From Levilactobacillus lanxiensis (GTDB taxonomy: Bacteria; Bacillota; Bacilli; Lactobacillales; Lactobacillaceae), in the NCBI RefSeq assembly GCF_016861655.1, contig NZ_BOLN01000002.1, positions 1 through 64,000 on the forward strand: DNA of 64,000 bases, read 5' to 3'. Below are positions 927 through 63,843 of this stretch, in pieces. Both the position numbers and the translations under genes were made by a program. The notes beneath the pieces are model-generated. The model worked only from the letters and a program-made list of their open reading frames with translations, searched no databases and had not been told where the DNA came from. Within the stretch, counting starts at the first letter, position 1. Every line of letters begins with the position of its first letter.

Positions 927-1176
927 GCCTCCGGGCTGGTGAAAATGGGCCTCGTCGCGTCCGTTCCCGGCGGTGAGCTCAAGCTGCCCTGCTGTGGGGC
1001 CGGTTACAGCCAAAGCGCGGGCTTCCACCTCAACTTTGCGCCTGAGAACCGGTCGCAAAGGTTGTCCCGTGGACTAGGCTGAAAAAGAACTTCAGCCAAG
1101 ACCACCGACACAGCTGGTCGGCTTGGCTCACCTCTGGTCACTGCCACAACTGGCCCATTTTCACCAGCCCTGCGGC
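927..1176 (-). repeat. SIR element 1 (long type)
   Basis: This is a full copy, read on the minus strand. The ends are GCCGCAGGGCTGGTGAAAAT and ATTTTCACCAGCCCGGAGGC. Inside are GTGACCAGAGG, CAGCTGTGTCGGTGG, a GGCTGAAG/TTCAGCC hairpin, a CTTTGCG/CGCAAAG hairpin, CCCCACAGCAGGG and CCGCCGGGAACG. The rest of the 880-1655 spacer outside elements 1 and 2 and the araA terminator (1177-1391) shows nothing recognisable. Confidence 0.85.
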
Positions 1177-1391
1177 TAACACTTGTTTACCCCGTTACCG
1201 CGTCATTCTTCTTGTTGTCGGTAACATACTTATTGTTTTGAGATGATGTCACTTATTCTATTGATATCCACATATTTTACTGGTAGATTCCGTGACGCTG
1301 GCTGTTGCTCAGAACCTGTGAAATTACTAATCCACGCTGCTGACAACACACAATCCCTACACACCCACTCCGGCCACTTCTCTTCACATTT

Positions 1392-1590
1392 GTGAGCGAC
1401 CAAAGGCAACCTTGCGGACGCAGCTGTGTCGATGGCGTTAGCTGGGGATTCTCACCCAGGTTAGGCCATGGAACGACCTTGGAAACTCGCGCTTTTCAGC
1501 GAGGTTTCAAGGCGAGACGGAGGACCGCTCCTCAGGCCGTAGTCGGTCCCCACAGCAGAGCACCTTGAGGCTGCCGCCGGGAGCGCAAAG
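1392..1590 (+). repeat. SIR element 2 (long type, ends lost)
   Basis: It contains the core CAGCTGTGTCGATGG, a CTTGGAAACTCGC/GCGAGGTTTCAAG hairpin, GGACCGCTCCTCAGGCC and CCCCACAGCAGAG. The outer GGTGAAAAT arms are not visible. It abuts the araA terminator. Confidence 0.75.
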
Positions 1591-1604
1591 CACAAACCGA
1601 TAAG

Positions 1605-1641
1605 AAAAGTGGCCGTCCGCCTTACCGGCGAGCGGCCACTC
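1605..1641 (-). terminator. araA terminator
   Basis: On the minus strand AGTGGCCGCTCGCC pairs with GGCGGACGGCCACT and is followed by TTTTCTT. It lies 15 bases past the araA stop. Confidence 0.85.
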
Positions 1642-1655
1642 CTTTTCAATTAAAA

Positions 1656-3080
1656 TTACTTAATGAAAGCCTTAGTCATGCCAACCATGGTAGCGTAGTC
1701 TTCCATTTGTTCTTCAGTCAAGGAGAAGGAAAGCATGGTGTGGTGACCACCACCGGCCTTCATCCATTCCAAGGCACCGGTCTTCAAGCCAACCTTTGGC
1801 GTCCAGAGTTGCTTAGCAACTGGCAACTTAGGCGTTTCAGCTTCTGGCTTGTTCGCGTCTACGGCGTAGCTGATCATCTTGAAGCCGTCGCGGAAGTCCG
1901 CAACAGTGACATCAATGGCGTCACCTTCGGAACCCGTGAAGACCAGACGTGCAGGGTCAGCCTTACCACCGATATCCAATGGGTGAACCTCAACGCGTGG
2001 CTTGTCGGAAGCGATTGAAGGATCAACTTCCAGCATGTGAGAACCGAGGATGGCTTCGTGGCCCTTCCGCAGATCCAACGTGTAGTCTTCCATGAAGGCC
2101 GTCCGGTCGTTGTGGGACATGATCTTCATGACACGGCCCAAGGCAGCGGTCTTCCAGTCACCTTCGGCACCGAAGCCATAACCGTCACGAATCAATAATT
2201 GTGCGGCCAAACCAGGAAGTTGTTCCATCCCCCAGAGGTCTTCGAAGTTCGTGGTGAAGGCCGTGTAACCGCCCTTTTCCAAGAAACTCTTGATTCCCAG
2301 GTATTGCTTCAATTGTACGCGAACAGAGTGCTTGTATTTGTCAGCATCGTTGTCGCCTTGAACCATTTCGTAACGAGATTCGAGGTCGGCGTATTCCTTG
2401 TCGATGTCAGCGTCAGCAACCTTGCTGATCTCTTCAACTAAATCACCGATACCGTAGTAGTCGACAGTCCAGCCCATCTTGATTTGTGCTTCAACCTTGT
2501 CACCTTCAGTAACGGCAACGTTGCGCATAGTATCGCCAAAGCGAGCAACCTTAACCTTAAAGCTTTCGTTGTAAGCAACGGCAACGTCTTCCCAACGCGC
2601 GATTTGTTCTTGCACGTCTTCGTCACCCCAGTAGCCGTAAACGATCTTGTTGTTCTTTTGTAAACGGGCGTTGATGTAGGCGTATTCGCGGTCACCATGG
2701 GCACTTTGGTTCAAGTTCATGTAATCAAAGTCGATGTCGGCATAAGGAATGTTGTTCAGGTATTGGGTAGCCAAGTGAAGTAATGGCTTTTGTAATAATT
2801 CCGTCCCACGGATCCAGTTCTTGGCTGGGGAGAACGTGTGCATCCAAGTGATCACACCGGCAACCTTGTCGTTGTAGTTAACTTCCTTCATGAAATTGGT
2901 GATGCTTTCAGCGGTCGTCATGACATCCTTGAAGACCACCTTGTAAGGCAATTTGCCGCTAGCGTTCAGCTTGTCGGCAATGTCTTGAGCATCCTTAGCA
3001 ACGGACTTCAATTGTTCTTCACCATACAGGTGTTGGGAACCGGTAACAAACCAAAATTCATAATCTGGAACTGATAACAT
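1656..3080 (-). CDS. araA: L-arabinose isomerase
   Basis: A 474-residue protein that interconverts L-arabinose and L-ribulose, the first step of arabinose catabolism, as a Mn-dependent cytoplasmic oligomer. The whole length matches AraA: N-terminal [16 protein letters not shown], central [14 protein letters not shown] and [14 protein letters not shown] (a metal-site glutamate region), [10 protein letters not shown], and the C-terminal [10 protein letters not shown]. Length is normal. The start is an ATG with AAAGGAG upstream. A 376-base spacer holding a SIR repeat and an operator-like site separates it from araD, so araA probably has its own promoter instead of relying on readthrough from araBD. 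It has a strong terminator of its own. Confidence 0.97.
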
Positions 3081-3154
3081 AATAATGACACTCCTTTGAT
3101 ATATTTTTTATTTATTCGCGATAATTCAAGTAGCCAACCTATGCCATTTATAAA

Positions 3155-3172
3155 TACTGATTCATATAAGTA
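3155..3172. promoter_or_regulatory. Probable AraR operator upstream of araA
   Basis: The minus-strand reading TACTTATATGAATCAGTA matches the perfect araB-upstream palindrome (6091-6108) at 14 of 18 positions. It lies about 75 bases before the araA start. AraR binding is inferred from position and the shared sequence. Confidence 0.5.
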
Positions 3173-3271
3173 TCATAGGCATGAACCCAAATGGATCAGG
3201 CCCACAACAATCACACTCACGCTAGTCCAGAGAATACCGCGCGACGTTCACAACCATTGCCAGTAGCCGGA

Positions 3272-3435
3272 GCTAACTAGGGATGGATGCCTGTGTCGGT
3301 GGTGTTGACCGGTGTCATCCCGGCCTTACAGCACGGGACGCTGGCAAGCCTCACAAAGGCGTGAGGCTTGCCAGCGAGGCCGAAGACCGCTCTTTGGCTT
3401 CGGCTGTGCCCCACAGGCAGGAATTCCTAGTTAGC
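3272..3435 (+). repeat. SIR element 3, inside the ara gene cluster
   Basis: The outer stem is GCTAACTAGG/CCTAGTTAGC. Inside are CCTGTGTCGGTGGTGTT, a CTGGCAAGCCTCAC/GTGAGGCTTGCCAG hairpin, the GCCGAAGACCGCTCTTTGGC hairpin and CCCCACAGG. It sits between araD and araA. The outer arms differ completely from the GGCTGGTGAAAAT arms of other copies yet still pair. Confidence 0.8.
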
Positions 3436-3456
3436 GCAGGCGTCAAGGTCAAAGCC

Positions 3457-4188: not shown

Positions 4189-4213
4189 ATTCTTTCTCCT
4201 TAACTATCAGTGA

Positions 4214-5818: not shown

Positions 5819-5867
5819 GCGATTAACCTCCATAGCTCTGTCGGCTAGTTCTGTAACTTATGACTCA

Positions 5868-12652: not shown

Positions 12653-12704
12653 GGCTGGAACCGGCCCCAAAGCAGAACAGCTTGACTTCGCCGCCGGGAA
12701 CGGG
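12653..12704 (+). repeat. SIR element 4 (fragment)
   Basis: Only the 3' third remains: GGCTGGAACCGGCCCC, AAAGCAGAACAGCTTGA and CGCCGCCGGGAACGGGC. It ends about 6 bases short of the uvrA-like stop codon. Confidence 0.65.
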
Positions 12705-22906: not shown

Positions 22907-22988
22907 CGTTCCCGGCGGTGGGGAACGGTTCCAGCCTGAGGGGCGGTCTGCCACCTCGCCTTGAAACCTTGATCCCCCTCTGGTCACT
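22907..22988 (-). repeat. SIR element 5 (internally deleted)
   Basis: Read on the minus strand it has GTGACCAGAGG, then jumps to GGTTTCAAGGCGAGGTGG, CAGACCGCCCCTCAGGCTGG and CCGCCGGGAACG. The CTGTGTCGGTGG hairpin block is missing. It creates a false N-terminal extension on the neighbouring ORF. Confidence 0.75.
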
Positions 22989-23089
22989 TAAACTGGTCTG
23001 ATTTAAACACAATTTTTTTATACATTCTATCTACTAGCAATAACTCATTGTAGTATACCATACGCCCCATCTCCCCCTATCCAGAGCCG

Positions 23090-28096: not shown

Positions 28097-28870
28097 TTAC
28101 TTATCCAAGCCATGAATAGCATGACCTAATGTCTTCGTGAATTTCAAAGTCGAGTCGTACATCTGATCGGTAACGTCGCCCATATCAGGTTGGCGTTTCA
28201 CCGCAGCAGAATCCTTTAAGACCTTTTTCCATTGCTTCGCTAGTTTTGCGTTAATCTTAGCGCTGAACCGACCTTTGAAAATTTTATAAGTCGCCTGACA
28301 TCCCCGCAGCGTTTTAGCGTTCGATGTACTATAGGTTGCCTCAAGAATCGAGGGAATACCCGCATCCTCAACATAGATACTGTCATTATAAGCATGGGCT
28401 AAAGTCATGCCGCTCAACGAGTCACGGTACAATTGGTACCCGTCATCCTTGGGATTATCAACATATTTGTATGTCGCTTTAAAACGCCGAATGTCAGAGG
28501 CACGTTGTGCCAGGTTTTGGGTCTTGTTTAGATACCCTTTCCAAATCCAACCGTTAATATTGCCCTTCTTGTTTTTAACATAGTAATAGGTTGCCCGCTT
28601 ACCATTAGCCTTCTTCAGCTTGACTGACTTCGTCGCGTAGAACGTCGTTTTCACTGTCTTGAACGTCTTAGGCGACTTCTTCGTCAGCTTAGTTGAGGTA
28701 TATAGGCTGCCGCCATTGGGATGGAACTTGGTCTTCGCTAATTTTTGGTGGCTAATTACTTTGGCCGCCTTGGTCTTTGCCAAAGCTGGCGAAGAGACTG
28801 TGGCCACGGAGACGATGCCAAAACTGAGTGCCATCAATCCGGCAATAACTAGCTTTATTCGTTTGTTCAT
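28097..28870 (-). CDS. Secreted protein C (SH3-like N-terminal half, variable C-terminal half)
   Basis: A 257-residue exported protein. The signal peptide is residues 1-30 (ends SSPALA-K). Residues 31-115 form a lysine-rich SH3/GW-like module ending YYYVKNKKGNINGWIWKGYL, a type that binds the cell wall. The C-terminal half (residues 120-257) is helical and of unknown function. The N-terminal 130 residues are nearly identical to protein D (28998-29756), while the C-terminal halves have diverged strongly. I chose ATG at 28870 with GAGGAGG upstream; an ATG six codons earlier overlaps that site. Confidence 0.75.
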   Translation of the reverse strand: MNKRIKLVIAGLMALSFGIVSVATVSSPALAKTKAAKVISHQKLAKTKFHPNGGSLYTSTKLTKKSPKTFKTVKTTFYATKSVKLKKANGKRATYYYVKNKKGNINGWIWKGYLNKTQNLAQRASDIRRFKATYKYVDNPKDDGYQLYRDSLSGMTLAHAYNDSIYVEDAGIPSILEATYSTSNAKTLRGCQATYKIFKGRFSAKINAKLAKQWKKVLKDSAAVKRQPDMGDVTDQMYDSTLKFTKTLGHAIHGLDK

Positions 28871-28891
28871 TCGCTTAATCCTCCTCATGAC

Positions 28892-28997: not shown

Positions 28998-29756
28998 CTA
29001 ATCCAGCGTATGAACCGCCTTAGCCAATGTCAGGCCAAAATCATTCGTTGCATTCCACAAATCGTCATCAGAACCAAAATTGTCCGATTTATATTCCGAA
29101 ATTGCTTTTAGAACTGCCTTTTTCTGCTTCAACAATTTTGCATTCGTTTTGGCATTAAAACGTCCCTTAAATATGTTGTACGCAGCTAAGGATGCTTTGG
29201 CCTCTTTGGGATTCCAGGCATAGAACCCGGTTAACAAGGAAGCAATTCCAGCCTTATCAACGTGGTCACTAATATTATAAGCATGAGCTAACGTCATTTC
29301 TCGAAGTGCCTTGTCTGTCAGGGAACGCATATCGCCCCGCTTCTCCAACAATGAATAGGCTCCCTTGAATCTTCGGATATCTGATGAACGCTGAGCTAAA
29401 TCTGAAGTCTTATTCAAAAAGCCTTTCCAAATCCAACCGTTAATATTACCCTTCTTATTTTTAACGTAGTAATAGGTTGCCCGCTTACCATTAGCCTTCT
29501 TGAGTTTGACCGATTTCGTCGCGTAGAACGTCGTTTTTACTGTCTTGAACGTCTTAGGCGACTTCTTCGTCAGCTTAGTTGAGGTATATAGACTTCCGCC
29601 ATTGGGATGGAACTTGGTCTTCGCTAATTTTTGGTGGCTAATCACTTTGGCCGCCTTAGTCTTTGCCAAAGCGGGTGAAGAGGCCGTGGCCACAGAGACG
29701 ATGCCAAAGCTGAGCGCCACCAATCCGGCAATAACTAACTTTACCCGTTTATTCAT
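28998..29756 (-). CDS. Secreted protein D (paralogue of C)
   Basis: A 252-residue exported protein, sister of protein C. Signal peptide and SH3/GW-like module (residues 1-115) are almost the same, ending NINGWIWKGFLNKT. From about residue 130 the sequence follows only the general pattern (LREMTLAHAYN, YNIFKGRFNAKTNAKLLKQK) with many substitutions. Only 21 bases separate it from gene E upstream, so they share a transcript. ATG at 29756 has GAGGAGG upstream. Function unknown; wall attachment by the N-terminal module is likely. Confidence 0.75.
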   Translation of the reverse strand: MNKRVKLVIAGLVALSFGIVSVATASSPALAKTKAAKVISHQKLAKTKFHPNGGSLYTSTKLTKKSPKTFKTVKTTFYATKSVKLKKANGKRATYYYVKNKKGNINGWIWKGFLNKTSDLAQRSSDIRRFKGAYSLLEKRGDMRSLTDKALREMTLAHAYNISDHVDKAGIASLLTGFYAWNPKEAKASLAAYNIFKGRFNAKTNAKLLKQKKAVLKAISEYKSDNFGSDDDLWNATNDFGLTLAKAVHTLD

Positions 29757-29777
29757 TCGCTTAATCCTCCTCATGAC

Positions 29778-37018: not shown

Positions 37019-37262
37019 CCGGTGATGGAAAATTTGCTTGGTCTCCACGGTCTACACCTGCGGCTGACAGCCCCGTGCCACCTGTGGGGCCCGGCAGAAG
37101 CCAAAAAGCGGTCTTCTACCTCGCCTTGGAGCCTTGTAAAAACCACAAGTCTCCAAGGTCGGCCCGTGCTGTAAGGTCGGAAAAATCCCGGCCTAACAGC
37201 ACCGACACAGGTGGCACGGGGCTGTCCTCCTCCGGTTCCGACCAAGCAAATTTTCATCTCGG
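37019..37262 (-). repeat. SIR element 6 (divergent outer stem)
   Basis: The outer arms GATGGAAAATTTGCTTGGTC and GACCAAGCAAATTTTCATC pair, with one arm base extra, although they differ from the usual GGTGAAAATGGGC. Inside: CACCTGTGTCGGTGCTGTT, a CTTGGAG/CTCCAAG hairpin, GAAGACCGCTTTTTGGCTTC and CCCCACAGGTGG. It lies upstream of guaA. Confidence 0.85.
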
Positions 37263-37426: not shown

Positions 37427-37603
37427 GCCGCAGGGCTGGTGAAAATGGACTCAGCCGTGGGAGTTGCCTTAGCGGGTTTCCCGCTTAGGCAACTGATATC
37501 TTTGAGACTCGATTCTTGAGGCTCAAAGTAAGCTCGGAGACCGCCCTTCGGCTTCGGACGTGCGCCCACAGCGTCACGGCCCAGTTTTCACCAGCCCGGA
37601 GGC
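37427..37603 (+). repeat. SIR element 7 (short type)
   Basis: Ends GCCGCAGGGCTGGTGAAAAT and GTTTTCACCAGCCCGGAGGC. Hairpins GTTGCCTTAGCGGG/CCCGCTTAGGCAAC, CTTTGAG/CTCAAAG and CTCGGAGACC/GGCTTCGG. It abuts the GNAT gene end. Confidence 0.88.
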
Positions 37604-39122: not shown

Positions 39123-39171
39123 GGAGACACCTCTACTTTGGTTAAAATAAACTGTTGTGCTGGGTCTTTCC

Positions 39172-39350
39172 GCCTGCGGGCGTTTAGGCTAGCCGGCCTG
39201 TGGGGCCCACCCGAAGCCAAAGAGCGGTCTTCGGGTTCGGTTTGAGCCACGAAAGTCACGTATCTCAAACGCGTCCCGTGCTGTAAGGCCGGAAAATCAC
39301 CGGTCTAACACCACCGACACAGGCGCTGGCAAGCCTAACGCCCTCCGGCT
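39172..39350 (-). repeat. SIR element 8 (divergent)
   Basis: Read on the minus strand: GTTAGGCTTGCCAGCGCCTGTGTCGGTGG... with CCGAAGACCGCTCTTTGGCTTCGG-type hairpin and CCCCACAGGCCGGCTAGCCTAAAC. The outer arms pair over about 20 positions with a few mismatches. Confidence 0.78.
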
Positions 39351-39533
39351 CCAAGACCGACCATCCGTTGATTTAAACCCGCACCAGTGTCTAAGATTCT
39401 AAGCCTTGGCACTGCTTGTTTTATACGCACAACAGGTCAAACAATTAAATCCTATTATACCGCAGATACGCTGGTTACCGGGCATGATTTCACCAGAATG
39501 GCAGCGGATTCAGTCAAGACACTTTATGGACAC

Positions 39534-41959: not shown

Positions 41960-42056
41960 GCCTGCGTCAGTTAGGTATGCCACCCCTGTGGGGCAACCCT
42001 TTGAAGCCATAGGGCGGTCTTCACAGGCGGCGGTTCCATACCTAACTGACTCCGTC
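41960..42056 (-). repeat. SIR element 9 (minimal form)
   Basis: Only 97 bp. A perfect 14-bp outer stem GTCAGTTAGGTATG/CATACCTAACTGAC encloses one CCTGTG/CACAGG stem and the GAAGACCGCCC hairpin. The two larger hairpins are lacking. Confidence 0.75.
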
Positions 42057-42265
42057 GCCACTCATATGGTAATTGTGGTGGCTAAATTAATTTATTTCAT
42101 GCACCAACTTTATTCCATAACTCTATTTTAGTCTAACCTACTAGATAAGTCATTGTCTTAACAGTTAGGCCGAATGATTAGTAAGGCGACCTACCGACGT
42201 CAACAATGAAACCAACAACATTAATCAACTATGCATGACTACGGGCTAAACCGATGGACACCACC

Positions 42266-42570
42266 GAGATGGTGAAAATCGACCAACCACATTGATTGTC
42301 ACTGGCATGGCCAGTCTGAGCGACCAGAGGCGTATCAAGCCGCCCAGCTGTGTCGACGTTCTTAGCTGCGTGATCTTCACAGCTTAGAACGTGGGCCGAC
42401 CTTTGAGACCGATTTTGGGCTCAAAGTCGAGGTGGCAGACCGCCCCTCAGGCTGGAACCGGGCCCCATAGCAGGGCGGCTTGAATCCGCCGCCGGGAGCG
42501 TCCGTACCGCCGATGTCAGTGACGGGCGTTCGCCCACAGCGTCACGGCCTATTTTCACCAGCCCGGAGGC
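42266..42570 (+). repeat. SIR element 10 (long/short chimera)
   Basis: It starts as a long type (CAGCTGTGTCGACG, CTTTGAG/CTCAAAG, GCAGACCGCCCCTCAGGCTG, CCGCCGGGAGCG) and continues into the 3' end of a short type (GGGCGTTCGCCCACAGCGTC, ATTTTCACCAGCCCGGAGGC). It looks like a recombinant. The rest of the 41892-42729 spacer holds nothing besides elements 9 and 10 and the promoter. Confidence 0.82.
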
Positions 42571-44637: not shown

Positions 44638-44815
44638 GCCTTGCCGGGCAGAAAAAATGAGCCGGAACGCTGGGGGCAGGACGGCCGAAGCCAAAGAGCG
44701 GTCTTCGCCCTCGCTTTGAACCGCCCAAATCGCGTTTCAAAGTCGCCATTCTTTGAAGAACACAGAGAATCCCCCGGCTGAGCTCATTTTCGCTGCCCTC
44801 TCGGCTACACTGCGA
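44638..44815 (-). repeat. SIR element 11 (short type)
   Basis: Minus strand: GCAGCGAAAATGAGCTCAGCCG... with a TTCTTTGAA... hairpin, CTTTGAAACGCG/CGGTTCAAAG, GAAGACCGCTCTTTGGCTTC, and ends at CATTTTTTCTGCCCGGC. The outer arms pair. Confidence 0.75.
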
Positions 44816-44837
44816 GTGCCCACACCATTGGTTATGT

Positions 44838-44880
44838 CTTTCAGTTAGTTACCACCTATGTATTGGTAACTAACTGAAAG
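44838..44880. repeat. Perfect 16-bp hairpin without U-run
   Basis: CTTTCAGTTAGTTACC and GGTAACTAACTGAAAG around an 11-base loop. No T-run on either strand, so not a normal terminator. It lies between SIR elements 11 and 12; GTTAGTTAC resembles the outer arms of elements 3 and 9. Confidence 0.8.
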
Positions 44881-44932
44881 TAGCTGTCATTTAACGAACA
44901 GTTGACCTTATCCATGGTCTAAACGTTTATCA

Positions 44933-45108
44933 GCCGCAGGGATGGTGAAAATAGGCTCAGCCGTGGGAGTTACCTTAGCGGCAAAGCCACTTAGGTAACT
45001 GATATCTTTGAGACTCGTCCTTTGAGGCTCAAAGTAAGTCCGAAGACCGCTCTTTGGCTTCGGACGTTCGCCCACAGCGCCACGGCCTATTTTCACTATC
45101 CCGGAGGC
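44933..45108 (+). repeat. SIR element 12 (short type)
   Basis: GCCGCAGGGATGGTGAAAAT to ATTTTCACTATCCCGGAGGC. The T-to-A type change in the left arm (GGGATGG) is matched by CTATCCC on the right. Inner hairpins as in element 7. Confidence 0.88.
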
Positions 45109-45921: not shown

Positions 45922-46035
45922 TAAGCATGAAAAAGACTGGCGTTCGAGCACCGACCTTACAAGCCACTTCAAGAGCGGAGACAGTAACGACGAATGAGTC
46001 GCCCTAACCCGTCAAAGATTTAGGGGGCGGCTTTT
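45922..46035 (+). ncRNA. Solo copy of a type I antitoxin RNA
   Basis: It shares a -10 region (AGAATATGCTATATT), GACCTTACAAGCC, CTTCAAGAGCGGAGACAGTA and a GTCGCCCT...GGGCGGC terminator with the copy at 46175-46291. A cre-like half site TGTAAGCGCTT lies upstream. The partner toxin is reduced to a 3' scrap (about 46036-46080, minus), so this RNA has no intact target beside it. Confidence 0.7.
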
Positions 46036-46174: not shown

Positions 46175-46291
46175 AATCATAGAAAAAGGCCGGCGTTGGA
46201 CCGCCGACCTTACAAGCCGCTTCAAGAGCGGAGACAGTAACGACAGATGAGTCGCCCTAGCCTGTCAAAGCTTATACAGGGCGGCTTTTTT
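46175..46291 (+). ncRNA. Type I antitoxin RNA (RatA-like arrangement)
   Basis: The probable promoter is TTGAAT-17-TATGCT. The transcript would run through GACCTTACAAGCCGCTTCAA and GAGCGGAGACAGTAACGAC to the hairpin GTCGCCCT...AGGGCGGC followed by TTTTTT. It converges on the toxin gene and is complementary to the 3' part of the toxin mRNA, as RatA is to txpA. Confidence 0.72.
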
Positions 46292-46408
46292 GATTACTTT
46301 CGATCGTGACGATCGATTAGTATCATCAATGTGGCAAACGCCAACATCAATGATAGCGCTTGAAACACGCTCATGGACTGTGAAACCTTTCTTTGGGATT
46401 TTTTCCAT
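46265..46408 (-). CDS. Leader ORF overlapping the toxin gene
   Basis: A 47-codon frame (MEKIPKKGFTVHERVSSAII...) with an excellent GAGGTG six bases before its ATG. It overlaps the whole toxin ORF in another frame. The protein looks like ordinary out-of-frame sequence, yet its start signal is better than the toxin's. It may couple or limit toxin translation; whether it is translated is not known. Confidence 0.35.
   Translation of the reverse strand: MEKIPKKGFTVHERVSSAIIDVGVCHIDDTNRSSRSKVIKKAALYKL
46294..46374 (-). CDS. Putative holin-like toxin of a type I toxin-antitoxin system
   Basis: A 26-residue peptide, MSVFQALSLMLAFATLMILI followed by DRHDRK. It has one membrane-spanning segment and a charged C-terminus, the pattern of the TxpA/BsrG-like holin-like toxins common in Firmicutes. 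Such peptides damage the membrane when made freely. AAAGG stands 11 bases upstream. It lies convergent to the antitoxin RNA at 46175-46291, overlapping in the 3' untranslated region. A palindrome GTAAGTCGACTTAC lies at 46496-46509, near where the toxin promoter should be. Confidence 0.8.
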   Translation of the reverse strand: MSVFQALSLMLAFATLMILIDRHDRK

Positions 46409-46539
46409 ACGCTTCACCTCAGAAGGAAAAAGACAGCCCCCGCTCACAAAACTTCCTGCATTTCCCAGTGTAACAGAGTTATCGCCATTCCCTCGGTAAG
46501 TCGACTTACAAATAATTCAATAAACCGTTCCATCTCTAT

Positions 46540-46639: not shown

Positions 46640-46899
46640 TTGGGCTTCGGGCTTCGGGCTAAACCAGCGACCTGGTCAACGCACAACCAGGAGCCGGAGG
46701 AAGCCAGGGCGGAGACGGCTGTGTCGGTGATGTTAGGCCGGTGGGCTTCCCGACCTTACATCACGGGGCGACTTTTGAGATGCCGACCCTGGCGGCTTAA
46801 AAGCGAGCTGGAGGAACCCTGGAAGCCGCAGGCGGCCATCCCCCACTCCACTGTCCTTGACCCAAAAGCCTTTGACCTAAAGCCCCGAACCAAGCCCAA
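46640..46899 (+). repeat. SIR element 13 (divergent)
   Basis: Core GGCTGTGTCGGTGATGTTAGGC, CCGACCTTACATCACGGGGCGA, CTTTTGAG/CTTAAAAG and GGAGGAACC. The outer arms TTGGGCTT...GGGCT and AGCCCCGAACCAAGCCCAA pair loosely. It lies next to the oppF terminator. Confidence 0.65.
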
Positions 46900-51182: not shown

Positions 51183-52811
51183 TTACTTAGCAATGTAAGC
51201 GCGACTGAAGTCCCAGTTAGCACCGGTTGGGAAGTAAATCAATCCCTTGACATCGGACTTGACCAGTTGGGCTTTCCCTTGTTGGTAAACGGGGATGATC
51301 CCTTGGTCATTTAAGATAGTCTTTTGGGCGTTAACCATGTCATTCCAACGAGCAGTGTTGTTGTTGGCATCTTTACCAGTGGCTGCGGCAACATCCTTGT
51401 CGTAAGCCTTGGAAGACCACTTCCCGTTGTTGTAAGAGTTACCTGAAGTGAACAGAGACAGGAATGAAATTGGGTCAGGGAAGTCAGCACCCCAAGCAGA
51501 GATAACGGCATCGAATTGGCCATTTTGTGAACGGCTCAAACGCGTCTTGAATGGCAAGTTACTGTTGGTAACCTTTAAGCCATCCAACTTAGCCCATTGA
51601 CTCTGGATGAATTCGGCACTGTTCTTACCGGCTGGCGTGTCATCGGCCATTAAGGTCAGTGAGTAGCTAGAACGGCCCGTTTCCTTCAAAGCTTGTTTCC
51701 AAAGCTTCTTAGCCTTGGCCAGGTCTTGTGAAGTTGCGGCTGGAACAGCAGCATCAGTGTTGAAGTCCGTTCCCTTGTTTTCAGCTAAACCAGTTGAAAC
51801 TAAGCCCTTTGAAGCAGTAGAACCATCAGCTAAGACCTTGTTGACGAATTGGTTCCGGTTGATAGCCAGTGATAAGGCTTGACGAGCCTTCTTGTTCTTC
51901 AACATTGAATCTTTCTTTTCGTTCAATTCAATGTAGAAGGTTGAGGCACTCTTACGTTCAACATATTGCTTGTCGTTCTTGTAGTTCTTAGGTTGTTGAC
52001 CACTCAAGTAAGTTGCGTCAAGCTTGCCACTTTGGTACTGACTCAAAGAAGTTTGGGGATCCTTCATCGTCTTGAAGTTGATCTTCTTTAGTTTAACATT
52101 CTTAGCGCCCCAGTACTTAGTGTTTTTGCTTAATGTCCAGTTATCGGACGTCCCAGTCCAGTAAGTTAACTTAAATGGACCGTTGTAGACGTTATCTTGG
52201 GCATTCGTTGCGTATTTCTTACCGTATTTTTGAACAACTGATTCATTTTGTGGGAAGAACATTGGACTTGCAACCAATGAAGGGAAGTAACTAGTGGCTT
52301 GTGTTAACGTTACAACCACCTTGTAGTCCCCTTCGGCCTTAATCCCTAAGCTAGAAACTGGCTTCTTCTTGTTCATGATGGCGTTGGCGTTCTTAACCTG
52401 CGCGTACATGTAAGCGTATTGTGAAGCGGTCTTAGGGTTAACGGTCCGTTGCCAGGCGTAAACGAAGTCTTTAGCGGTTACCTTGTCGCCGTTACTCCAG
52501 TTAGACTTACGCAAGTTGAAGGTGTAAGTCTTACCATCTTTGGACTTGGTGTAGCTCTTAGCGACCCCTGGGTGAATGGAACTGTTCTTGCCGATCCGGA
52601 GAAGACCTTCACCGGTGTTGTTCATCGTTTCCCCAGAAACAACATCCGTGGCGGTAGAAGAATCCATTGAAGGTAATGCGGAATTTTCCATCCAGTTTAA
52701 CGTCTGCTTGCTAGCCTCGCTAGAACTGTTTGATGATGATCCACACGCTGCAAGTAACACAGCGGCAAATGTCGCGACCGTTCCGAGTTTGACTGCCGAA
52801 TTGATTTTCAT
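51183..52811 (-). CDS. oppA: Oligopeptide-binding lipoprotein OppA
   Basis: A 542-residue lipoprotein receptor of the Opp system. Lipobox LLAAC puts the lipid on Cys23. The SBP_bac_5 fold is marked by GEGLLRIGKNSSIHPGVAKS, WSNGDKVTAKDFVYAWQRTV and a C-terminal FPTGANWDFSRAYIAK. It captures peptides for OppBC. It starts the opp operon. ATG at 52811 has GAGGGG 12 bases before. A second copy (53725-55353) of exactly the same length lies upstream with its own promoter. Confidence 0.96.
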   Translation of the reverse strand: MKINSAVKLGTVATFAAVLLAACGSSSNSSSEASKQTLNWMENSALPSMDSSTATDVVSGETMNNTGEGLLRIGKNSSIHPGVAKSYTKSKDGKTYTFNLRKSNWSNGDKVTAKDFVYAWQRTVNPKTASQYAYMYAQVKNANAIMNKKKPVSSLGIKAEGDYKVVVTLTQATSYFPSLVASPMFFPQNESVVQKYGKKYATNAQDNVYNGPFKLTYWTGTSDNWTLSKNTKYWGAKNVKLKKINFKTMKDPQTSLSQYQSGKLDATYLSGQQPKNYKNDKQYVERKSASTFYIELNEKKDSMLKNKKARQALSLAINRNQFVNKVLADGSTASKGLVSTGLAENKGTDFNTDAAVPAATSQDLAKAKKLWKQALKETGRSSYSLTLMADDTPAGKNSAEFIQSQWAKLDGLKVTNSNLPFKTRLSRSQNGQFDAVISAWGADFPDPISFLSLFTSGNSYNNGKWSSKAYDKDVAAATGKDANNNTARWNDMVNAQKTILNDQGIIPVYQQGKAQLVKSDVKGLIYFPTGANWDFSRAYIAK

Positions 52812-52875
52812 TTTATAATCCAACCCCTCTTAGTTGTTTGATAAATAAATTGACAACCTCAAATTTGATATTGCA

Positions 52876-53458: not shown

Positions 53459-53713
53459 GGCCAGGAAAATGAGACAGTTCCGGCCGATGTGAGTGACCAG
53501 AGGTGGGCCAAGCCGGCCAGCTGTGTCGGTGTTCTTAGCTGAGCGATTCTTCTCAGCTTAGAACACGGGGCGACCTTTGTGACCGCCTTTCAGGCACAAA
53601 GTCGAGGTCCCAGACCGCTTCTCAGGCTGGGACCGACCCCATAGCAGGCCCGCTTGAGACCACTGCCGGGAACGGACGTCACCGAACACCTCTCATTTTC
53701 ACTGCCGAAGCGG
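53459..53713 (+). repeat. SIR element 14 (long type)
   Basis: GGCCAGGAAAATGAGAC to TCTCATTTTCACTGCC. Core GTGACCAGAGG, CAGCTGTGTCGGTG, CTTAGCTGAG/CTCAGCTTAG, CTTTGTG/CACAAAG, CCCAGACCGCTTCTCAGGCTGGG, CCCCATAGCAGG and TGCCGGGAACGG. Confidence 0.88.
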
Positions 53714-53724: not shown

Positions 53725-55353
53725 TTACTTAGCGATGTAGGCCTTGCTGAAGTCCCAGTTGGAACTAACTGGGAAGTAAGTGACGCCCTTAACCTTTGAC
53801 TTAACCAATTGTGGCTTGCCACTCTGGTAAACCGGAATGATCCCTTGGTCCTTCAACAGAACCTTTTGGGCATCAATCAGATTTTGCCACCGGGCAGCCG
53901 GCTTGTTGGCGTTGGTCGTCGTAGCTTCCTTGACCAGCTTGTCGTAAGTCTTGTTAGACCATTTCCCATTGTTGTAGGAATTGTCGGACGTGAACAGAGA
54001 CAGGTCGGTGATTGGGTCTGGGAAGTCAGCGCCCCAGAGCGTCACCACGGCGTCGAACTGGCCACTAGCAGAACGGGAAAGCCGCGTCTTGTATGGCAAA
54101 TTAGAGTTGGTGACCTTGAAGTTAGGCAGCTTCGACCATTGACTCTGAACGAATTCGGTCGTGCTCTTGCCTTCAGCGGTATCGTCGGCCATCAGGGTCA
54201 GTGAGTAACTCTTACGCCCAGTTTCCTTTAAGGCTTCGTTCCACAACTTCTTAGCCTTAGCCAGGTTGTGTTCGGTAGCGGCAGGAATCGTGCCCTCAGT
54301 CGCAAAGTCCTTGCCGTTGCGGATGGCCAGACCACTCGTGACAATCCCGGTTGCGACCTTTGACCCGTTGTCGAGCACTTTGTTCACAAATTGATTCCGG
54401 TTGATGACCAATGACAAGGCTTGACGCGCCTTCTTGTTCCGCATCATGGAATCCTTCTTCTCGTTGAGTTCCAGGTAAGCGACCCGGGAACTGTTCCGCG
54501 CATGGTATTCCTTGTTGTTCTTGTAGTTCTTCGGTTGTTGGCCACTCAGGTAAATGGCATCGAGCTTGCCACTCTGGTATTGGCTCAAAGCCGTTTGGGG
54601 ATCCTTAACGGCACTAAATTTGATGTGCTTAAGCTTAACGGACTTGGCATTCCAGTACTTCGTGTTCTTCGTCAGCGTCCAGTTGTCAGACGTCCCGGTC
54701 CAGTAGCTCAGCTTAAAGGCCCCGTTGTAGACGTTGTCTTGGGCGTTGGTGGCGTACTTCTTGCCGTATTTTTCCACGACGCTTTGGTTTTGTGGGAAGA
54801 ACGCGGTTTGGGCGACCAGCGTTGGGAAGTAGCTGACGGGATGAATCAAAGTCACTTGGACCTTGTAATCCCCGACGGCCTTGATGCCCAGCGTGGAAAC
54901 GGCCTTCTTGCCATTCATGATGGCGTTGGCGTTCTTCACGTCAGCGTAGAGGTAGGCGTATTGGGACCCCGTCTTCGGGTTGACTGTGCGTTGCCAGCCG
55001 TAAACGAAATCTTTGGCGGTTACTTTATCCCCGTTGCTCCAGTTGGATTTCCGGAGATTAAACGTGTAGGTCTTGCCGTCCTTAGACTTGCTGTAGCTCT
55101 TGGCGACGGCGGGATGCGTGGTACTATTCTTGCCAAACTTCAACAGACCCTCACCTGTGTTGTTCAGCGTTTCACCGGAAACGACGTCGGTTGCCAACGA
55201 ACTGTCCATGGTTGGTAACGCGGAACTTTCCATCCAGGTCAAGGTTTGATCCTTGGCTTGGCTACTGCTGCTAGAAGATGAACCACACGCGGCTAACGCA
55301 ATGGTGGTTAGCGCGGCGACCGTCCCTAACTTAATGACTGATTTAACTCTCAT
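53725..55353 (-). CDS. Second oligopeptide-binding lipoprotein (OppA paralogue)
   Basis: A 542-residue lipoprotein, the same length as OppA and similar throughout. Lipobox IALAAC with Cys23, then GEGLLKFGKNSTTHPAVAKS, WSNGDKVTAKDFVYGWQRTV and FPVSSNWDFSKAYIAK. It has no permease or ATPase of its own, so it probably feeds OppBCDF with a different peptide range. ATG at 55353 has GAGGGG 9 bases before; the frame continues to 55389. It has its own promoter with an operator-like inverted repeat. Confidence 0.94.
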   Translation of the reverse strand: MRVKSVIKLGTVAALTTIALAACGSSSSSSSQAKDQTLTWMESSALPTMDSSLATDVVSGETLNNTGEGLLKFGKNSTTHPAVAKSYSKSKDGKTYTFNLRKSNWSNGDKVTAKDFVYGWQRTVNPKTGSQYAYLYADVKNANAIMNGKKAVSTLGIKAVGDYKVQVTLIHPVSYFPTLVAQTAFFPQNQSVVEKYGKKYATNAQDNVYNGAFKLSYWTGTSDNWTLTKNTKYWNAKSVKLKHIKFSAVKDPQTALSQYQSGKLDAIYLSGQQPKNYKNNKEYHARNSSRVAYLELNEKKDSMMRNKKARQALSLVINRNQFVNKVLDNGSKVATGIVTSGLAIRNGKDFATEGTIPAATEHNLAKAKKLWNEALKETGRKSYSLTLMADDTAEGKSTTEFVQSQWSKLPNFKVTNSNLPYKTRLSRSASGQFDAVVTLWGADFPDPITDLSLFTSDNSYNNGKWSNKTYDKLVKEATTTNANKPAARWQNLIDAQKVLLKDQGIIPVYQSGKPQLVKSKVKGVTYFPVSSNWDFSKAYIAK

Positions 55354-55405
55354 AAAATCCGACCCCTCTAAGTTAGTATGCCTAAGCAACTTTGTTGATA
55401 AAGAC

Positions 55406-55451: not shown

Positions 55452-55484
55452 TCGAGAGTTTCTGTTGGTCTTTGTCATCACCTT

Positions 55485-55660
55485 ACCGGGCGGTCAAAAT
55501 AGGCCGGAACGCGGTGGGCAGGACGCCGAAAGCCTGAGGAGCGGTCTTTCAGCTCGCTTTGAACCGCCAAGCCCGCGTTTCAAAGACGCCATTTAGTTTT
55601 CGGTGGTTCCCACCAAAAACTAAATCCCACGGCTGAGCCTATTTTGCCCGCCCTCACGGC
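55485..55660 (-). repeat. SIR element 15 (short type)
   Basis: Minus strand: GGCGGGCAAAATAGGCTCAG..., a TTTAGTTTTTGGTGG/CCACCGAAAACTAAA hairpin in place of the usual GTTGCCTTAG one, CTTTGAAACGCG/CGGTTCAAAG, and AAAGACCGCTCCTCAGGCTTT. Ends GCCTATTTTGACCGCCC. Confidence 0.82.
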
Positions 55661-55840: not shown

Positions 55841-56090
55841 GCCAATCCAGTGAAAATACACGATCAGTATAAGTGACCAGAGGCGAGCCAAGGTGACCAG
55901 CTGTGTCGATGGTCTTAGCTGAGGTTTCTCACTCAGCTTAGTCCATGGGACAACCTTTGAGACCGCCTCTCAGGCTCAAAGTTGAGGTGGAAGCCCGTCC
56001 CTCAGGCTGGAACCGGCCCCACAGCAGGGCGCCTTGAGCTCGCCGCCGGGAACGGACCTCAAACCGCCACCCGATTTTCACTAGTTTGGG
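55841..56090 (+). repeat. SIR element 16 (long type)
   Basis: CCAATCCAGTGAAAAT to ATTTTCACTAGTTTGG. Core GTGACCAGAGGCGAGCCAAGG, CAGCTGTGTCGATGG, CTGAG/CTCAG hairpin, CTTTGAG/CTCAAAG, CCCCACAGCAGGGC and CCGCCGGGAACG. It lies just before the hflX promoter. Confidence 0.88.
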
Positions 56091-57593: not shown

Positions 57594-57851
57594 ACCAATC
57601 AAATACCAAAACCAAGGCAACCGCCACCGGACAAACGACCAGCGCAGTCCGGGCTAAACAAGTGTCAGCCGCAGGGCTGGGAAAACTGGGCCGGTCGTGG
57701 GAGTGACCAGAGGCGAGCCAAGGTGCCCGGCTGTGTCGATGGACTTAACCATCTTACAAATTCACACAACCAAATACCTAAGCACAGACAACGGCCACCT
57801 GAACAAACGACCAGCGTAGTCCGGGCTAAACAAGTGTCAGCCGCAGGGCTG
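57594..57851 (+). repeat. Direct duplication carrying SIR heads
   Basis: About 80 bases (CCAAATACC, ACAAACGACCAGCG, GTCCGGGCTAAACAAGTGTC, then the SIR left end) occur at 57598-57680 and again at 57771-57852, with several differences. The first copy leads into a truncated SIR, the second into a complete one. Confidence 0.8.
57668..57752 (+). repeat. SIR element 17 (truncated)
   Basis: Left end GCCGCAGGGCTGGGAAAACT, then GTGACCAGAGGCGAGCC and GGCTGTGTCGATGG; it stops abruptly after CTTAACC. The 3' two thirds are gone. Confidence 0.8.
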
Positions 57852-58015
57852 GTGAAAATGGGCTCAGCCGTGGGAGTTGCCTTAGCGGGTTTCCCGCTTA
57901 GGCAACTGCTATCTTTGAGACTCGGTTCTTGAGGCTCAAAGTAAGTCTGGAGACCGCCTTTCGGCTCCAGACGTGCGCCCACAGCGCCACGGCCCATTTT
58001 CACCAGCCCGGAGGC
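57840..58015 (+). repeat. SIR element 18 (short type, complete)
   Basis: GCCGCAGGGCTGGTGAAAAT to ATTTTCACCAGCCCGGAGGC with perfect 17-bp arms GGCTGGTGAAAATGGGC/GCCCATTTTCACCAGCC. Inner hairpins GTTGCCTTAGCGGG/CCCGCTTAGGCAAC, CTTTGAG/CTCAAAG and GTCTGGAGACC/GGCTCCAGAC. It lies 32 bases from the glnP-like stop; no normal terminator is seen there. Confidence 0.92.
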
Positions 58016-60192: not shown

Positions 60193-60212
60193 AGTGAGCG
60201 TTCCTCCCCGTT

Positions 60213-60953: not shown

Positions 60954-61050
60954 AAGTATTCCCTCCACTAGTGATTTGTTTGCCGTGCTTGCGGCGGACT
61001 AGCGCCTCATCCAATCCCTTGAGACCAGATTTTTACAGTGTCTAATGTAA

Positions 61051-61079
61051 AGTTTAAACCAAAAAATTTACCCGGTCAA
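61051..61079 (-). promoter_or_regulatory. glnQ promoter
   Basis: Minus strand TTGACC, 17 bases, TAAACT. It lies about 100 bases before the glnQ start. Confidence 0.5.
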
Positions 61080-61243
61080 AGTAAACCACTCCAGGTTACC
61101 CACCCCTACTGACCGTTTGGGGGTTCAAAGATTAGATGTACCACGGGTCCAGTCTGCTTTCAAAAATATTTCACGCTTGTGATTCCCATGAGGAAGCGGC
61201 GAGAGCGTTTTCGGGCTCGGTTCATGACATCCCCTGTCACCTA

Positions 61244-61373
61244 GCCAGATTGGTGAAAATGAGGAGCGCGCCTTGGTTTTCGTTCCCGGCGGTGGGCTCA
61301 AGCTGGCCTGCTTGGCCCACCTCTGGTCACTAACATGGCTTAATCATTTTAACCAATTGCTCACTGCTCTGGC
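61244..61373 (-). repeat. SIR element 19 (internally deleted)
   Basis: Outer arms AATTGGTTAAAATGATTAAG (minus-strand reading) and the GTGAAAATGAGG side pair partly. It keeps GTGACCAGAGG, GGGCCAAGCAGGCCAGCTTGAG and CCGCCGGGAACG, but the three central hairpins are gone. Confidence 0.75.
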
Positions 61374-61433
61374 TAACACTATCCTGATTATCCCTTCCGT
61401 AGTTGCCACGCCTGTGTCACTTTGCTCACCACA

Positions 61434-61474
61434 CAAAAAAATCAACCTGCCCTGTCTGGGTGGTTGATTTTTTC
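61434..61474 (-). terminator. Bidirectional terminator
   Basis: AAAAAATCAACC pairs with GGTTGATTTTTT, with inner CCC/GGG. It ends the minus-strand membrane protein gene at 61507. Confidence 0.88.
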
Positions 61475-61506
61475 TGAGTCATTTTTAGTTTTGCCGGTCA
61501 CCTAAC

Positions 61507-62475: not shown

Positions 62476-62495
62476 TATCGGTCCCCCTTCCTTCG

Positions 62496-63017
62496 TTATT
62501 GATTTGTGCCGTCATTGGTTGTGCCAGTTGTCGTTTGGCCACCCGTGTCGGTATTGTCGGTCGTGTCATTTGCCGTATCGGCGTTGTCCGTTGAACTTTC
62601 TTCCGTAGTCGCTGAAGAGCTAACGGCGCTCGATGAAGTCTTCTTCTTTTTAGAATTAGTCGTTCCAGTCGTCGTCTTGCCAGTAGTGTTCTCCGCGGTA
62701 CTAGACTCGGTCGTAGAGGTCTTCTTGGCCGAGGAACTTTCCGTGTCCGTGGATGACTCGTCCTTCGATGAGGAATCACTGCTATCGGAACTGCTCTTAG
62801 AAGAGTCAGAATCCTTCTTCTTACTGTCGTCGCTAGCCTTTTTCTTCGAATCACTCGACGACATATTGTTGACCAGTGATGAGCTGGTGTTTGACACCCG
62901 CGTGGCGCCTTCGTTGGTCTTCGTCACCGTGTTCGTCACCACGTTAGTTGCCCCCAAGGCCAGAGCCATTGAGACAATTGCGAACGGCGTAATCAAGGGT
63001 GGTGTGCGATACCCCAT
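62496..63017 (-). CDS. Ser/Thr-rich anchored surface protein of unknown function
   Basis: A 173-residue protein with one N-terminal hydrophobic segment (ITPFAIVSMALALGATNVVT) that may be a membrane anchor or signal peptide, followed by about 140 residues made mostly of Ser, Thr, Lys, Asp and Glu in low-complexity order. It is likely an extended, possibly glycosylated stalk outside the cell. GGAGG lies before the ATG. No LPxTG is present. Next gene downstream is the membrane protein at 61507-62475. Confidence 0.72.
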   Translation of the reverse strand: MGYRTPPLITPFAIVSMALALGATNVVTNTVTKTNEGATRVSNTSSSLVNNMSSSDSKKKASDDSKKKDSDSSKSSSDSSDSSSKDESSTDTESSSAKKTSTTESSTAENTTGKTTTGTTNSKKKKTSSSAVSSSATTEESSTDNADTANDTTDNTDTGGQTTTGTTNDGTNQ

Positions 63018-63091
63018 GCGTCATTCCTCCTTCGTTTTGCCTAATTACGACTATTGTCGCATAGGAAACTCAAAAATCTTTCAAATTTATC

Positions 63092-63550
63092 TTAATTTTT
63101 CACTAAGTCTGCTTCCTGAACGCCGGCCGCCTTGCAGTCAGCGCAGAGGCCGTACAGTTCGAAGCTGTGCCCAGCAATTTCACAACCCGGTAATTGATCT
63201 GTGAAAAAGTCCATCGGGCACATCTGTAATTCAATCACCTTACCACAATTTTGACACACAAAATGATGATGGTGTTGGTGATGCAGGTCACACTGATACT
63301 TGACCCGCGCCCGTTCCTGTTCCGTGTTTTGCTCAACGATGCCAACCTCTTCAAATTCCTTGAGGTTACGGTAAACCGTGTTGTGGCTCATCCCCGGAAA
63401 CTCGGTCCGCATGTAAGCATCCACGGTCACCACGTCGGTGTAGTGGGCTTGGTTCGTCAGCAGAAACTCCAAGAGAGCATGCCGTTGCTTGGTCATCTTC
63501 AGTTTGTTCTTCTTTAAAATTGCGACGGCGGTGGTTAACGATTCTGCCAT
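63092..63550 (-). CDS. Fur-family metalloregulator
   Basis: A 152-residue regulator. Winged helix at 1-80 (KMTKQRHALLEFLLTNQAHY, PGMSHNTVYRNLKEFEEVGI), then the metal region DLHHQHHHHFVCQNCGKVIE and a second CxxC pair (LCADC) that forms the structural zinc site. It could be Zur, Fur or PerR; the extra His run and ELQMCPMD slightly favour Zur or Fur, but this is not secure. I chose ATG at 63550 with GGAGG 9 bases before; TTG three codons earlier overlaps that site. Confidence 0.85.
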   Translation of the reverse strand: MAESLTTAVAILKKNKLKMTKQRHALLEFLLTNQAHYTDVVTVDAYMRTEFPGMSHNTVYRNLKEFEEVGIVEQNTEQERARVKYQCDLHHQHHHHFVCQNCGKVIELQMCPMDFFTDQLPGCEIAGHSFELYGLCADCKAAGVQEADLVKN

Positions 63551-63591
63551 AGTGCCCAACCTCCTTCTTTCTCTGTCTTAACTGGTTCATA

Positions 63592-63843
63592 GGCCAGTGA
63601 AAATAAACGGGTATTGATGATGCTGGTCGTTCCCGGCGGCGGGCTCAACCTGCCCTGCTGTGGGGTCGCTTTCAGCCTGCGGGGCGGGCTTTCAGCTCGA
63701 CTTGAAACCTCGCTGAGGTTCGCGAGTTTCCAAGGTCGTCCCGTGGACTAGGCTGAGAAAGGACCTCAGCCAAGGCCACCGACACAGCTGGTCAGGTTGG
63801 CCCGCCTCTGGTCACTGATAGGGTGCGGTGATTTTCACTAGCC
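63592..63843 (-). repeat. SIR element 20 (long type)
   Basis: Minus strand: GGCTAGTGAAAATCACC..., GTGACCAGAGGCGGGCC, CAGCTGTGTCGGTGG, GGCTGAGG/CTCAGCC, CTTGGAAACTCGC/GCGAGGTTTCAAG, CCCCACAGCAGGGC and CCGCCGGGAACG, ending ATTTTCACTGGCC. The remaining 63844-64000 shows nothing certain. Confidence 0.88.

What the first reader, a model, noticed from the sequence alone, without database searches (positions are those of the whole stretch)
927..63843. A high-copy family of structured intergenic repeats (SIR elements), about 20 copies in 64 kb
Twenty related elements lie only between genes, in both orientations. Most full copies are 165-300 bp. Complete copies begin GCCGCAGGGCTGGTGAAAAT and end ATTTTCACCAGCCCGGAGGC, and hold three hairpins plus conserved unpaired motifs (GTGACCAGAGG, CTGTGTCGGTGG, AGACCGCYYYTYRGGCT, CCCCACAGCAGGG, CCGCCGGGAACG). 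They have no ORF and no U-run. A density of one per 3 kb is far above that of ordinary bacterial repeats. I know no named family that matches, but cannot search.
Basis: partly seen in the sequence, partly recalled or inferred. Interest (0 to 1): 0.88.

Follow-up and report, generated by a model that had tools for sequence, protein, structure and literature searches.

The report
Dense structured repeats between Levilactobacillus genes
The gaps between genes in this lactic acid bacterium hold many copies of a folded, non-coding repeat that often sits in mirrored pairs pointing at the neighbouring genes and seems to be rewritten in place; no family in the RNA library searched matches it, and it may be a new kind of genomic parasite.

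Summary
Confirmed: the window holds 20 copies or fragments of one repeat family (17 by model; three fragments). About 460 kb of the same contig hold 107. Short S and long L forms share terminal inverted repeats, an imperfect stem and three hairpins, with strong covariation. Rfam has no match over an element. Hits occur in 33 of 35 genomes of the genus and, diverged, in 9 of 40 sampled genera of the family.

New here: (1) the 3' end is nearer a gene in 97 of 107, and pairs in one gap lie mostly 5'-to-5'; (2) S flanks carry copy-specific complementary arms to about 60 nt; (3) S and L replace each other at orthologous sites, orientation kept; (4) recent S copies lie mostly opposite the inferred leading strand, but not in a more distant species.

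Best reading: a non-autonomous, hairpin-forming repeat shaped by replication-linked template switching and recombination. RNA function is unproven. New variant of a known kind.

The parts
927..1176 (-). L element, both terminal inverted repeats present
1394..1585 (+). L element, interior; 5'-to-5' doublet with the preceding one
3261..3445 (+). diverged L-type element between the araD and araA genes
12653..12703 (+). fragment of the 3' part of an L element
   Evidence: family D8
22907..22989 (-). internally deleted L element
37055..37238 (-). diverged L-type element, doublet partner of the next
37427..37603 (+). S element; its 5' flank is complementary to its 3' flank
39171..39351 (-). diverged L-type element
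41987..42022 (-). fragment, perhaps remnant of the doublet partner of the next element
   Evidence: family D19; orientation read from the family
42260..42570 (+). L element with an S-like right end (composite)
44638..44805 (-). lower-scoring S element, doublet partner of the next
44933..45108 (+). S element; L. mulengensis has an L element at this site
46719..46831 (+). truncated L element
53491..53674 (+). L element, interior
55480..55660 (-). lower-scoring S element, doublet partner of the next
55871..56054 (+). L element, interior; best R2 score in the window
57653..57760 (+). 5' fragment of an L element followed by a repeat of its own 5' flank
57840..58015 (+). S element; best R1 score listed for the genome; L. 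wangkuiensis has a single L element here
61281..61332 (-). fragment of an L element
63628..63843 (-). L element (interior 63628-63817); doublet partner of an S element just beyond the window

Best explanation
A family of small, non-coding, non-autonomous repeats of Lactobacillaceae that persists because of what it does as single-stranded, hairpin-forming DNA during replication, not because of a gene product. SHOWN (by sequence comparison): two forms with one conserved multi-hairpin fold; high copy number; mostly 5'-to-5' doublets with 3' ends toward genes; S elements flanked by copy-specific inverted arms; S in one species where L stands in another at orthologous sites; tandem duplications of 5' flank plus element 5' end; recent S copies mostly in one orientation relative to inferred replication in three close genomes. 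INFERRED: nascent strands that enter the element fold back or switch template. Switching onto the same strand writes an inverted copy of the gene-proximal (3') flank onto the 5' side and keeps stems paired. Switching onto another copy through the shared terminal repeats replaces L by S. Slipping back duplicates the 5' side. The 3' junction stays fixed next to the gene while the 5' side is scrambled, so mainly copies whose 5' side lies in a spacer survive. How an element first reached an empty gap is not resolved.
For: Fold: on an alignment made without structure (A3, 23 rows) 97.8% of cells pair; 107 cells change on both sides against 24.1 shuffled and 2-13 in slid controls; 18 cells change on one side, as expected if both sides often change in one step. 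Arms: 139 S copies, window 20-45 nt out, -9.85 against -6.95 (sd 0.19) kcal/mol for re-paired flanks, no difference at 50-75 nt and beyond; same for 36 S on the own contig. Placement: 97 of 107 have the 3' end nearer a gene (medians 68 and 441 nt); adjacent pairs in one gap are -+ 20, ++ 8, -- 1, +- 0 (before removal of one double row). The rule recurs in relatives; the 10 pairs closer than 600 nt in the other-genus loci are all -+. Exchange: 58 of 102 site comparisons differ in composition; at ten sites S and L swap with orientation kept (five of the ten seen in alignments). Slippage-like products. Orientation of recent S, opposite:same as the leading strand inferred from GC skew: L. mulengensis 28:2, L. 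wangkuiensis 24:6 (1 unclear), own genome 37:7; older S 28:29, L 43:48. In 20 of 52 single-element gaps the 5' spacer holds element remnants, 0 in five shuffles.
Against: No transposition or conversion was observed, only inferred from three close species whose sites are not independent. The replication bias is absent in a more distant species (G030: 43 + and 29 - in one half of the chromosome, 37 + and 41 - in the other, p 0.14) and in older copies. L arms are weak (n = 17, z about -2). Complementarity to the part that lies in the neighbouring gene is only suggestive (z -2.7 and -1.3, n = 30). One measure, the number of further pair types, does not exceed its shuffles (45 against 43.8). One site reads as inverted between species (53491). 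No trans-acting enzyme was found. Strong covariation is also what a functional RNA would give.
Confidence: 0.5

Rival explanations
1. Structured RNA genes or RNA parasites: the + strand is transcribed, folds into a multi-hairpin junction and acts as RNA (protein sponge, RNase target, or an RNA intermediate of spread by target-primed reverse transcription).
For: Complex conserved architecture with a conserved U.U mismatch and an unpaired A; G.T cells exceed A.C cells on the + strand, 195:73 for S and 143:56 for L; a fixed 3' junction and a variable 5' side would fit priming at the 3' end.
Against: Counted per pair the G.T excess is not significant (30 against 17, p 0.08; 24 against 16, p 0.27), and unpaired columns show a larger C-to-T over G-to-A asymmetry on the same strand. 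Promoter scores in 5' spacers equal shuffled ones (7.35 against 7.32). Reverse transcriptases (RVT_1) are in 10 of 35 genomes and none was found in L. mulengensis (G016), which has many recent S copies.
Confidence: 0.25
2. Classical MITEs moved by a transposase that recognises the terminal inverted repeats.
For: Terminal inverted repeats of at least 14 bp, short length, high copy number, mostly intergenic.
Against: Not AT-rich (about 0.53-0.65 G+C). No transposase-like ORF, by eye, between widely spaced ends at the three loci inspected. Outermost sequence differs per copy yet pairs with its other side. Among 102 comparisons no full own S copy faces an empty site in L. mulengensis or L. wangkuiensis.
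Confidence: 0.12
3. REP/REPIN-like elements mobilised in inverted doublets by a Y1 (RAYT-type) transposase.
For: Mostly 5'-to-5' doublets and dispersed copies; Y1_Tnp matches in 23 of 35 genomes.
Against: No Y1_Tnp match in L. wangkuiensis (G029), which has many recent S copies, and matches in G012 and G024, which have no R1 match. Elements are several times longer than the 20-40 bp given for REPs (PMC3733652, start of abstract in the listing).
Confidence: 0.05
4. Functional gene-boundary elements (transcription insulators or mRNA 3' stabilisers) kept by selection at each gene end.
For: 3' ends sit near gene boundaries; most sites compared are occupied in close species.
Against: Both start and stop sides are faced (43 and 65 of 108 rows), the mix of gap types resembles background, and there is no consistent orientation to tandem genes (S 9 same, 11 opposite; L 13 same, 25 opposite). 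Two of 35 genomes of the genus have no R1 match and one has four.
Confidence: 0.08

Closest known systems
BOX, RUP and SPRITE repeats of Streptococcus pneumoniae (PMC3049150, passages read)
   Same: Small interspersed repeats, predicted stem-loops if transcribed, composite forms with optional internal parts, often between genes.
   Different: No BOX, RUP or SPRITE sequence was compared here. No IS partner with these ends was found (limited search); elements form doublets with 3' ends toward genes, and forms replace each other in place.
bcr1-bcr18 repeats of the Bacillus cereus group (PMC6542083, passages read)
   Same: 100-400 bp dispersed repeats of Bacilli; that paper gives 11-130 full bcr1 copies per genome.
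   Different: bcr mobility is linked there to a TTTAT motif, not looked for here; copy number here is extrapolated to about 700 per genome, and matches occur in nine genera.
REP/REPIN-RAYT system (PMC3116915 and PMC2817692, search listing with start of abstract only)
   Same: High-copy palindromic repeats, also in inverted pairs.
   Different: Core of about 165-310 nt with several hairpins; presence does not track a Y1 transposase.
Quasipalindrome template-switch mutation (PMC8794818, abstract and outline; PMC7202029, listing only)
   Same: Makes reverse-complement copies and two-sided changes that keep stems paired.
   Different: A mutational process, not an element family; here it would shape many dispersed copies and their flanks.
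rli28 (Rfam RF01492)
   Same: One match lies in the window, 46304-46482 minus strand, in the same gap as an element fragment.
   Different: It overlaps no element, and no element matches the rli28 model.

Membership tests
Any Rfam 15 RNA family | Match at or above the gathering score | tested here: not met
   Window and 13 loci of relatives: no match over an element
MITE | Terminal inverted repeats | tested here: met
   GGGCTGGTGAAAAT ... ATTTTCACCAGCCC in complete copies
MITE | AT-rich | tested here: not met
   About 0.53-0.65 G+C for window copies
MITE | Target site duplication | tested here: inconclusive
   Flanks read by eye show no constant direct repeat, but copy-specific inverted complementarity; no clean empty sister site to define the junction
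MITE | Partner transposase with the same ends | tested here: inconclusive
   Three loci with widely spaced ends hold no transposase-like ORF by eye; no systematic search
REP/REPIN-RAYT | Inverted doublets | tested here: met
   -+ 20, ++ 8, -- 1, +- 0; 10 of 10 pairs closer than 600 nt in other-genus loci
REP/REPIN-RAYT | Y1 transposase in genomes with recent copies | tested here: not met
   No match in G029; matches in two genomes without elements
BOX elements | boxA-boxB-boxC modules with sequence match | not tested
   No BOX sequence was compared
bcr repeats | TTTAT motif and sequence match | not tested
   Not compared
Retron or group II intron derivative | Reverse transcriptase in genomes with recent copies | tested here: not met
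   RVT_1 in 10 of 35 genomes, none found in G016
Structured non-coding RNA | Covariation supporting a conserved fold | tested here: met
   27 of 60 pairs, 107 cells against 24.1 shuffled; the count of further pair types is at shuffle level
Structured non-coding RNA | G.U tolerated on one strand only | tested here: inconclusive
   Cell counts favour it, per-pair test and unpaired-column control do not
Structured non-coding RNA | Transcription | not testable with these tools
   No expression data; promoter scores at background

The most novel reading that the evidence does not exclude
A new class of selfish chromosomal element that spreads and renews itself without any enzyme of its own or of an IS, by capturing replication-fork template switching: the structured core is copied onto other copies through its terminal repeats in one fork direction, and each event writes an inverted copy of the neighbouring gene's end as a private arm.
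Probability: 0.2. Interest if true: 0.88.

Novelty: new variant of a known kind. Interest (0 to 1): 0.66.

Why it matters
Small intergenic repeats are often seen as relics of transposons. This family is denser than bcr1 as reported, reaches several genera, and follows rules that can be tested in food bacteria: it points at genes, it pairs head to head, and its forms replace each other in place, recently mostly in one replication direction. That would make the question of how such repeats spread without a visible transposase directly testable, and it gives a natural system for studying template-switch mutation. It also matters for annotation: about 4.2% of the contig examined belongs to these elements, and 16 of my simple ORF calls there overlap an element by more than 30 bp; some of these look spurious, others like real genes with overlong starts.

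Tried and rejected
Autonomous copy: terminal-repeat pairs 1.2-2.4 kb apart (C5:219099/220967, C5:178164/179354, C2:188824/191236) turned out to be separate elements with other ORFs between. Insertion into transcription terminators: one striking case (GCAGATAGTTG...CAACTATCTGC followed by T's, in the flank list) but no clear excess of T-runs over 137 copies (right side 14 against 10.0, sd 2.2; either side 30 against 26.9, sd 3.7). Y1 transposase and reverse transcriptase as drivers. Promoters in 5' spacers. Plasmid or phage origin: no match for S or L in plasmids, none for S in phages; L was not run against phages. Orientation along neighbouring genes: none clear. I first took the G.T excess of model-fitted alignments (260:30 and 267:59) as a sign of RNA; the structure-free count shrank it and the per-pair test removed significance. 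I first thought the repeated 5' flanks were independent copies of the 3' flank; at 57.5-58.1 kb they share changes absent from it, so one is a direct duplicate (read).

Limits: genes are simple ORF calls, not a gene finder's. Site comparisons cover 75 of 85 gap clusters of one contig (65 comparisons with L. mulengensis, 37 with L. wangkuiensis), against the stretches held. L. mulengensis, wangkuiensis and cerevisiae were assigned to handles G016, G029 and G006 by equal contig lengths. Genome searches score a capped number of candidates (78, 13 or 150 per genome), so copy counts are lower bounds; one search used stricter filters. Rows dropped before counts: reverse-strand and low-score model hits below my cut-offs on the contig (R1 103 bits, R2 71 bits); in A4 all rows after 118, in A5 all after 92, 110 or 112 depending on the script.
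Full report
WHAT IS THERE. The window is the first 64 kb of contig C2 of a 3.03 Mb genome in 24 contigs. Repeat search and two covariance models give 17 elements plus three fragments. Complete copies come in a short form S (24 own copies aligned, 91% mean column identity) and a more diverse long form L (11 full copies; 23 interiors). Both start and end with mutually inverted repeats, and the inverted region runs further out.

FOLD. S and L share one architecture: the terminal stem, a second stem (short in S, long and imperfect in L), and three hairpins: the first usually with a T.T mismatch in CTTAGC..GCTTAG, the second with an unpaired A in GAG-A-C (also the third in S). On the structure-free alignment A3, 97.8% of cells pair and 27 of 60 pairs have two-sided changes: 107 cells against 24.1 (sd 3.7) shuffled and 2-13 in slid controls; the number of further pair types (45) is at shuffle level (43.8).

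RNA OR DNA? One-sided changes are rare (18 cells against 107 two-sided), which fits single-step two-sided change; a published study proposes template switching as one cause of such changes (PMC8794818, abstract and outline). G.T cells outnumber A.C cells on the + strand (195:73 and 143:56), but per pair the excess is not significant, and unpaired columns show a larger C-to-T bias on the same strand (0.155 against 0.037 in S). I therefore leave the acting molecule open and lean to DNA.

ABUNDANCE AND RANGE. On about 460 kb of contig C2 I count 107 elements, 36 S and 71 L (searches show 108 rows because C2:400458 was seen in two overlapping stretches). That is about one per 4.3 kb and, if even, about 700 in the genome (extrapolation). 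R1 finds 33 of 35 genomes of the genus (the own one included) at E <= 0.001, with none in G012 and G024 and four hits in G004. In a sample of 201 genomes of the family 42 match, in 9 of 40 genera, the own included; the alignments shown, which cover three other genera, keep hairpins with replaced stem sequences. Rfam finds none of the elements tested, and blastn finds no similar DNA in the plasmid collection (S and L) or phage collection (S).

PLACEMENT RULES. Elements favour no gap type or gene direction clearly. But 97 of 107 have the 3' end nearer a gene than the 5' end (medians 68 and 441 nt), and adjacent elements in one gap are -+ 20, ++ 8, -- 1, +- 0. In single-element gaps it is 47 of 52. 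The rule recurs, 3' nearer: 5' nearer: L. mulengensis 72:12 (17 not usable), L. wangkuiensis 75:12 (15), other named loci 14:7 (4), a region of G030, G025 and L. cerevisiae 11:2 (1), other genera 14:5 (1). In the other-genus loci the 10 pairs closer than 600 nt are all -+ (L221, L223, L225, L228, L229, L230, L233, L234, L236, L237). In 20 of 52 single-element gaps the 5' spacer holds remnants (11 in the same, 9 in the opposite orientation) against 0 in five shuffles. So doublets may be the basic arrangement, with decay in the middle.

PRIVATE ARMS. Sequence outside the conserved ends differs between copies, yet the two flanks of an S copy tend to pair with each other. For 139 S copies the mean duplex energy is -13.08 against -9.57 at 0-25 nt, -9.85 against -6.95 at 20-45, -9.89 against -8.22 at 35-60, and -8.79 against -8.62 (sd 0.19) at 50-75. 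The own contig repeats this (36 S, z -9.5, -7.9, -3.4, then about 0); L shows it weakly (17 copies, z -2.1, -2.1, then about 0). Because the 3' flank often runs into a gene end, the 5' arm is probably the derived one; at 29 orthologous comparisons the 5' arm is less alike than the 3' arm in 22, more alike in 5, equal in 2, though nearness to a gene alone could cause that. Complementarity within the gene part is suggestive only (z -2.7 and -1.3, n = 30).

IN-PLACE EXCHANGE. Between the own contig and the stretches held of L. mulengensis and L. wangkuiensis I made 102 site comparisons in 75 of 85 gap clusters: 44 with the same composition, 58 different. At ten sites S in one species stands where L stands in another, between the same anchored flanks and in the same orientation (C2:37427, 44933, 57840, 135796, 137702, 149840, 243120, 254279, 264604, 398011); I looked at base-level alignments for five of them (44933, 57840, 137702, 243120, 264604). 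One site (53491) reads as inverted in L. mulengensis. No full own S copy faces an empty site; four comparisons at three sites came back blank (3261 twice, 214863, 222434), for a diverged L, an L and a partial copy, and at 3261 alignment shows the relatives do hold related sequence. The more distant G030 lacks the elements at 3261 and at 44638-45108. A recurring by-product is a truncated L, then a second copy of the 5' flank, then a full element.

REPLICATION DIRECTION. Recent S copies lie mostly opposite to the leading strand as inferred from GC skew: 28:2 in L. mulengensis, 24:6 (1 unclear) in L. wangkuiensis, 37:7 in the own genome (44 of 50 examined, 6 not fetched); older S 28:29, L 43:48 (1 unclear). 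The three genomes share insertions, so they are not independent. G030, whose S copies score lower, shows no bias by chromosome half.

WHAT IT IS NOT. Genomes with recent copies can lack a match to Y1 transposases (G029) or to reverse transcriptases (G016), and genomes without copies can have Y1. No transposase-like ORF was seen between widely spaced ends at three loci. There is no clear link to terminators and no promoter excess upstream.

MECHANISM. Most likely the element is a replication-dependent DNA parasite: hairpins invite template switching, which copies arms, keeps stems paired, duplicates the 5' side and, through terminal repeats shared by the copies, lets one form overwrite another. 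The 3' junction is stable, the 5' side is not, so copies with the 5' side toward a gene are mostly lost. This joins the observations but is inference.

KNOWN RELATIVES. BOX/RUP/SPRITE (PMC3049150, passages) and bcr repeats (PMC6542083, passages) are the closest kind. Searches for a prior description in Lactobacillaceae (listings only) showed none that I recognised in the held library. PMC2267715 mentions Lactobacillus once, a table row for L. johnsonii (one passage); PMC3733652 does not mention lactobacilli. Subscription papers and ISfinder are outside reach. I file it as a new variant of the known kind 'small interspersed intergenic repeat'.

Noticed in passing
window 46304-46482, minus strand: Rfam RF01492 (rli28) match just above the gathering score (47.2 against 45); PMC8249650 (passages) reports five rli28 copies in L. 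casei Zhang and a growth effect of one.
   Followed up: partly
window 45929-46020 and 46182-46273: Two 92-nt direct repeats, 88% alike, beside the rli28 match in a 1.1 kb gap; form resembles antitoxin RNAs of type I toxin-antitoxin pairs (recalled, not tested).
   Followed up: no
window 51183-52823 and 53725-55389: Two neighbouring ORFs (546 and 554 aa), minus strand, with stretches 72-76% identical.
   Followed up: no
window 28097-28888 and 28998-29774: Tandem ORFs sharing a 300-nt stretch that is 88% identical.
   Followed up: no
window 3261-3445 and L150: An element sits between araD and araA in this species, with related sequence in two relatives; G030 has none there.
   Followed up: partly
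   Followed up: no
A4 and A5, unpaired columns: Marked C-to-T over G-to-A asymmetry on the element + strand in unpaired columns (0.155 against 0.037 in S, 0.162 against 0.032 in L).
   Followed up: no
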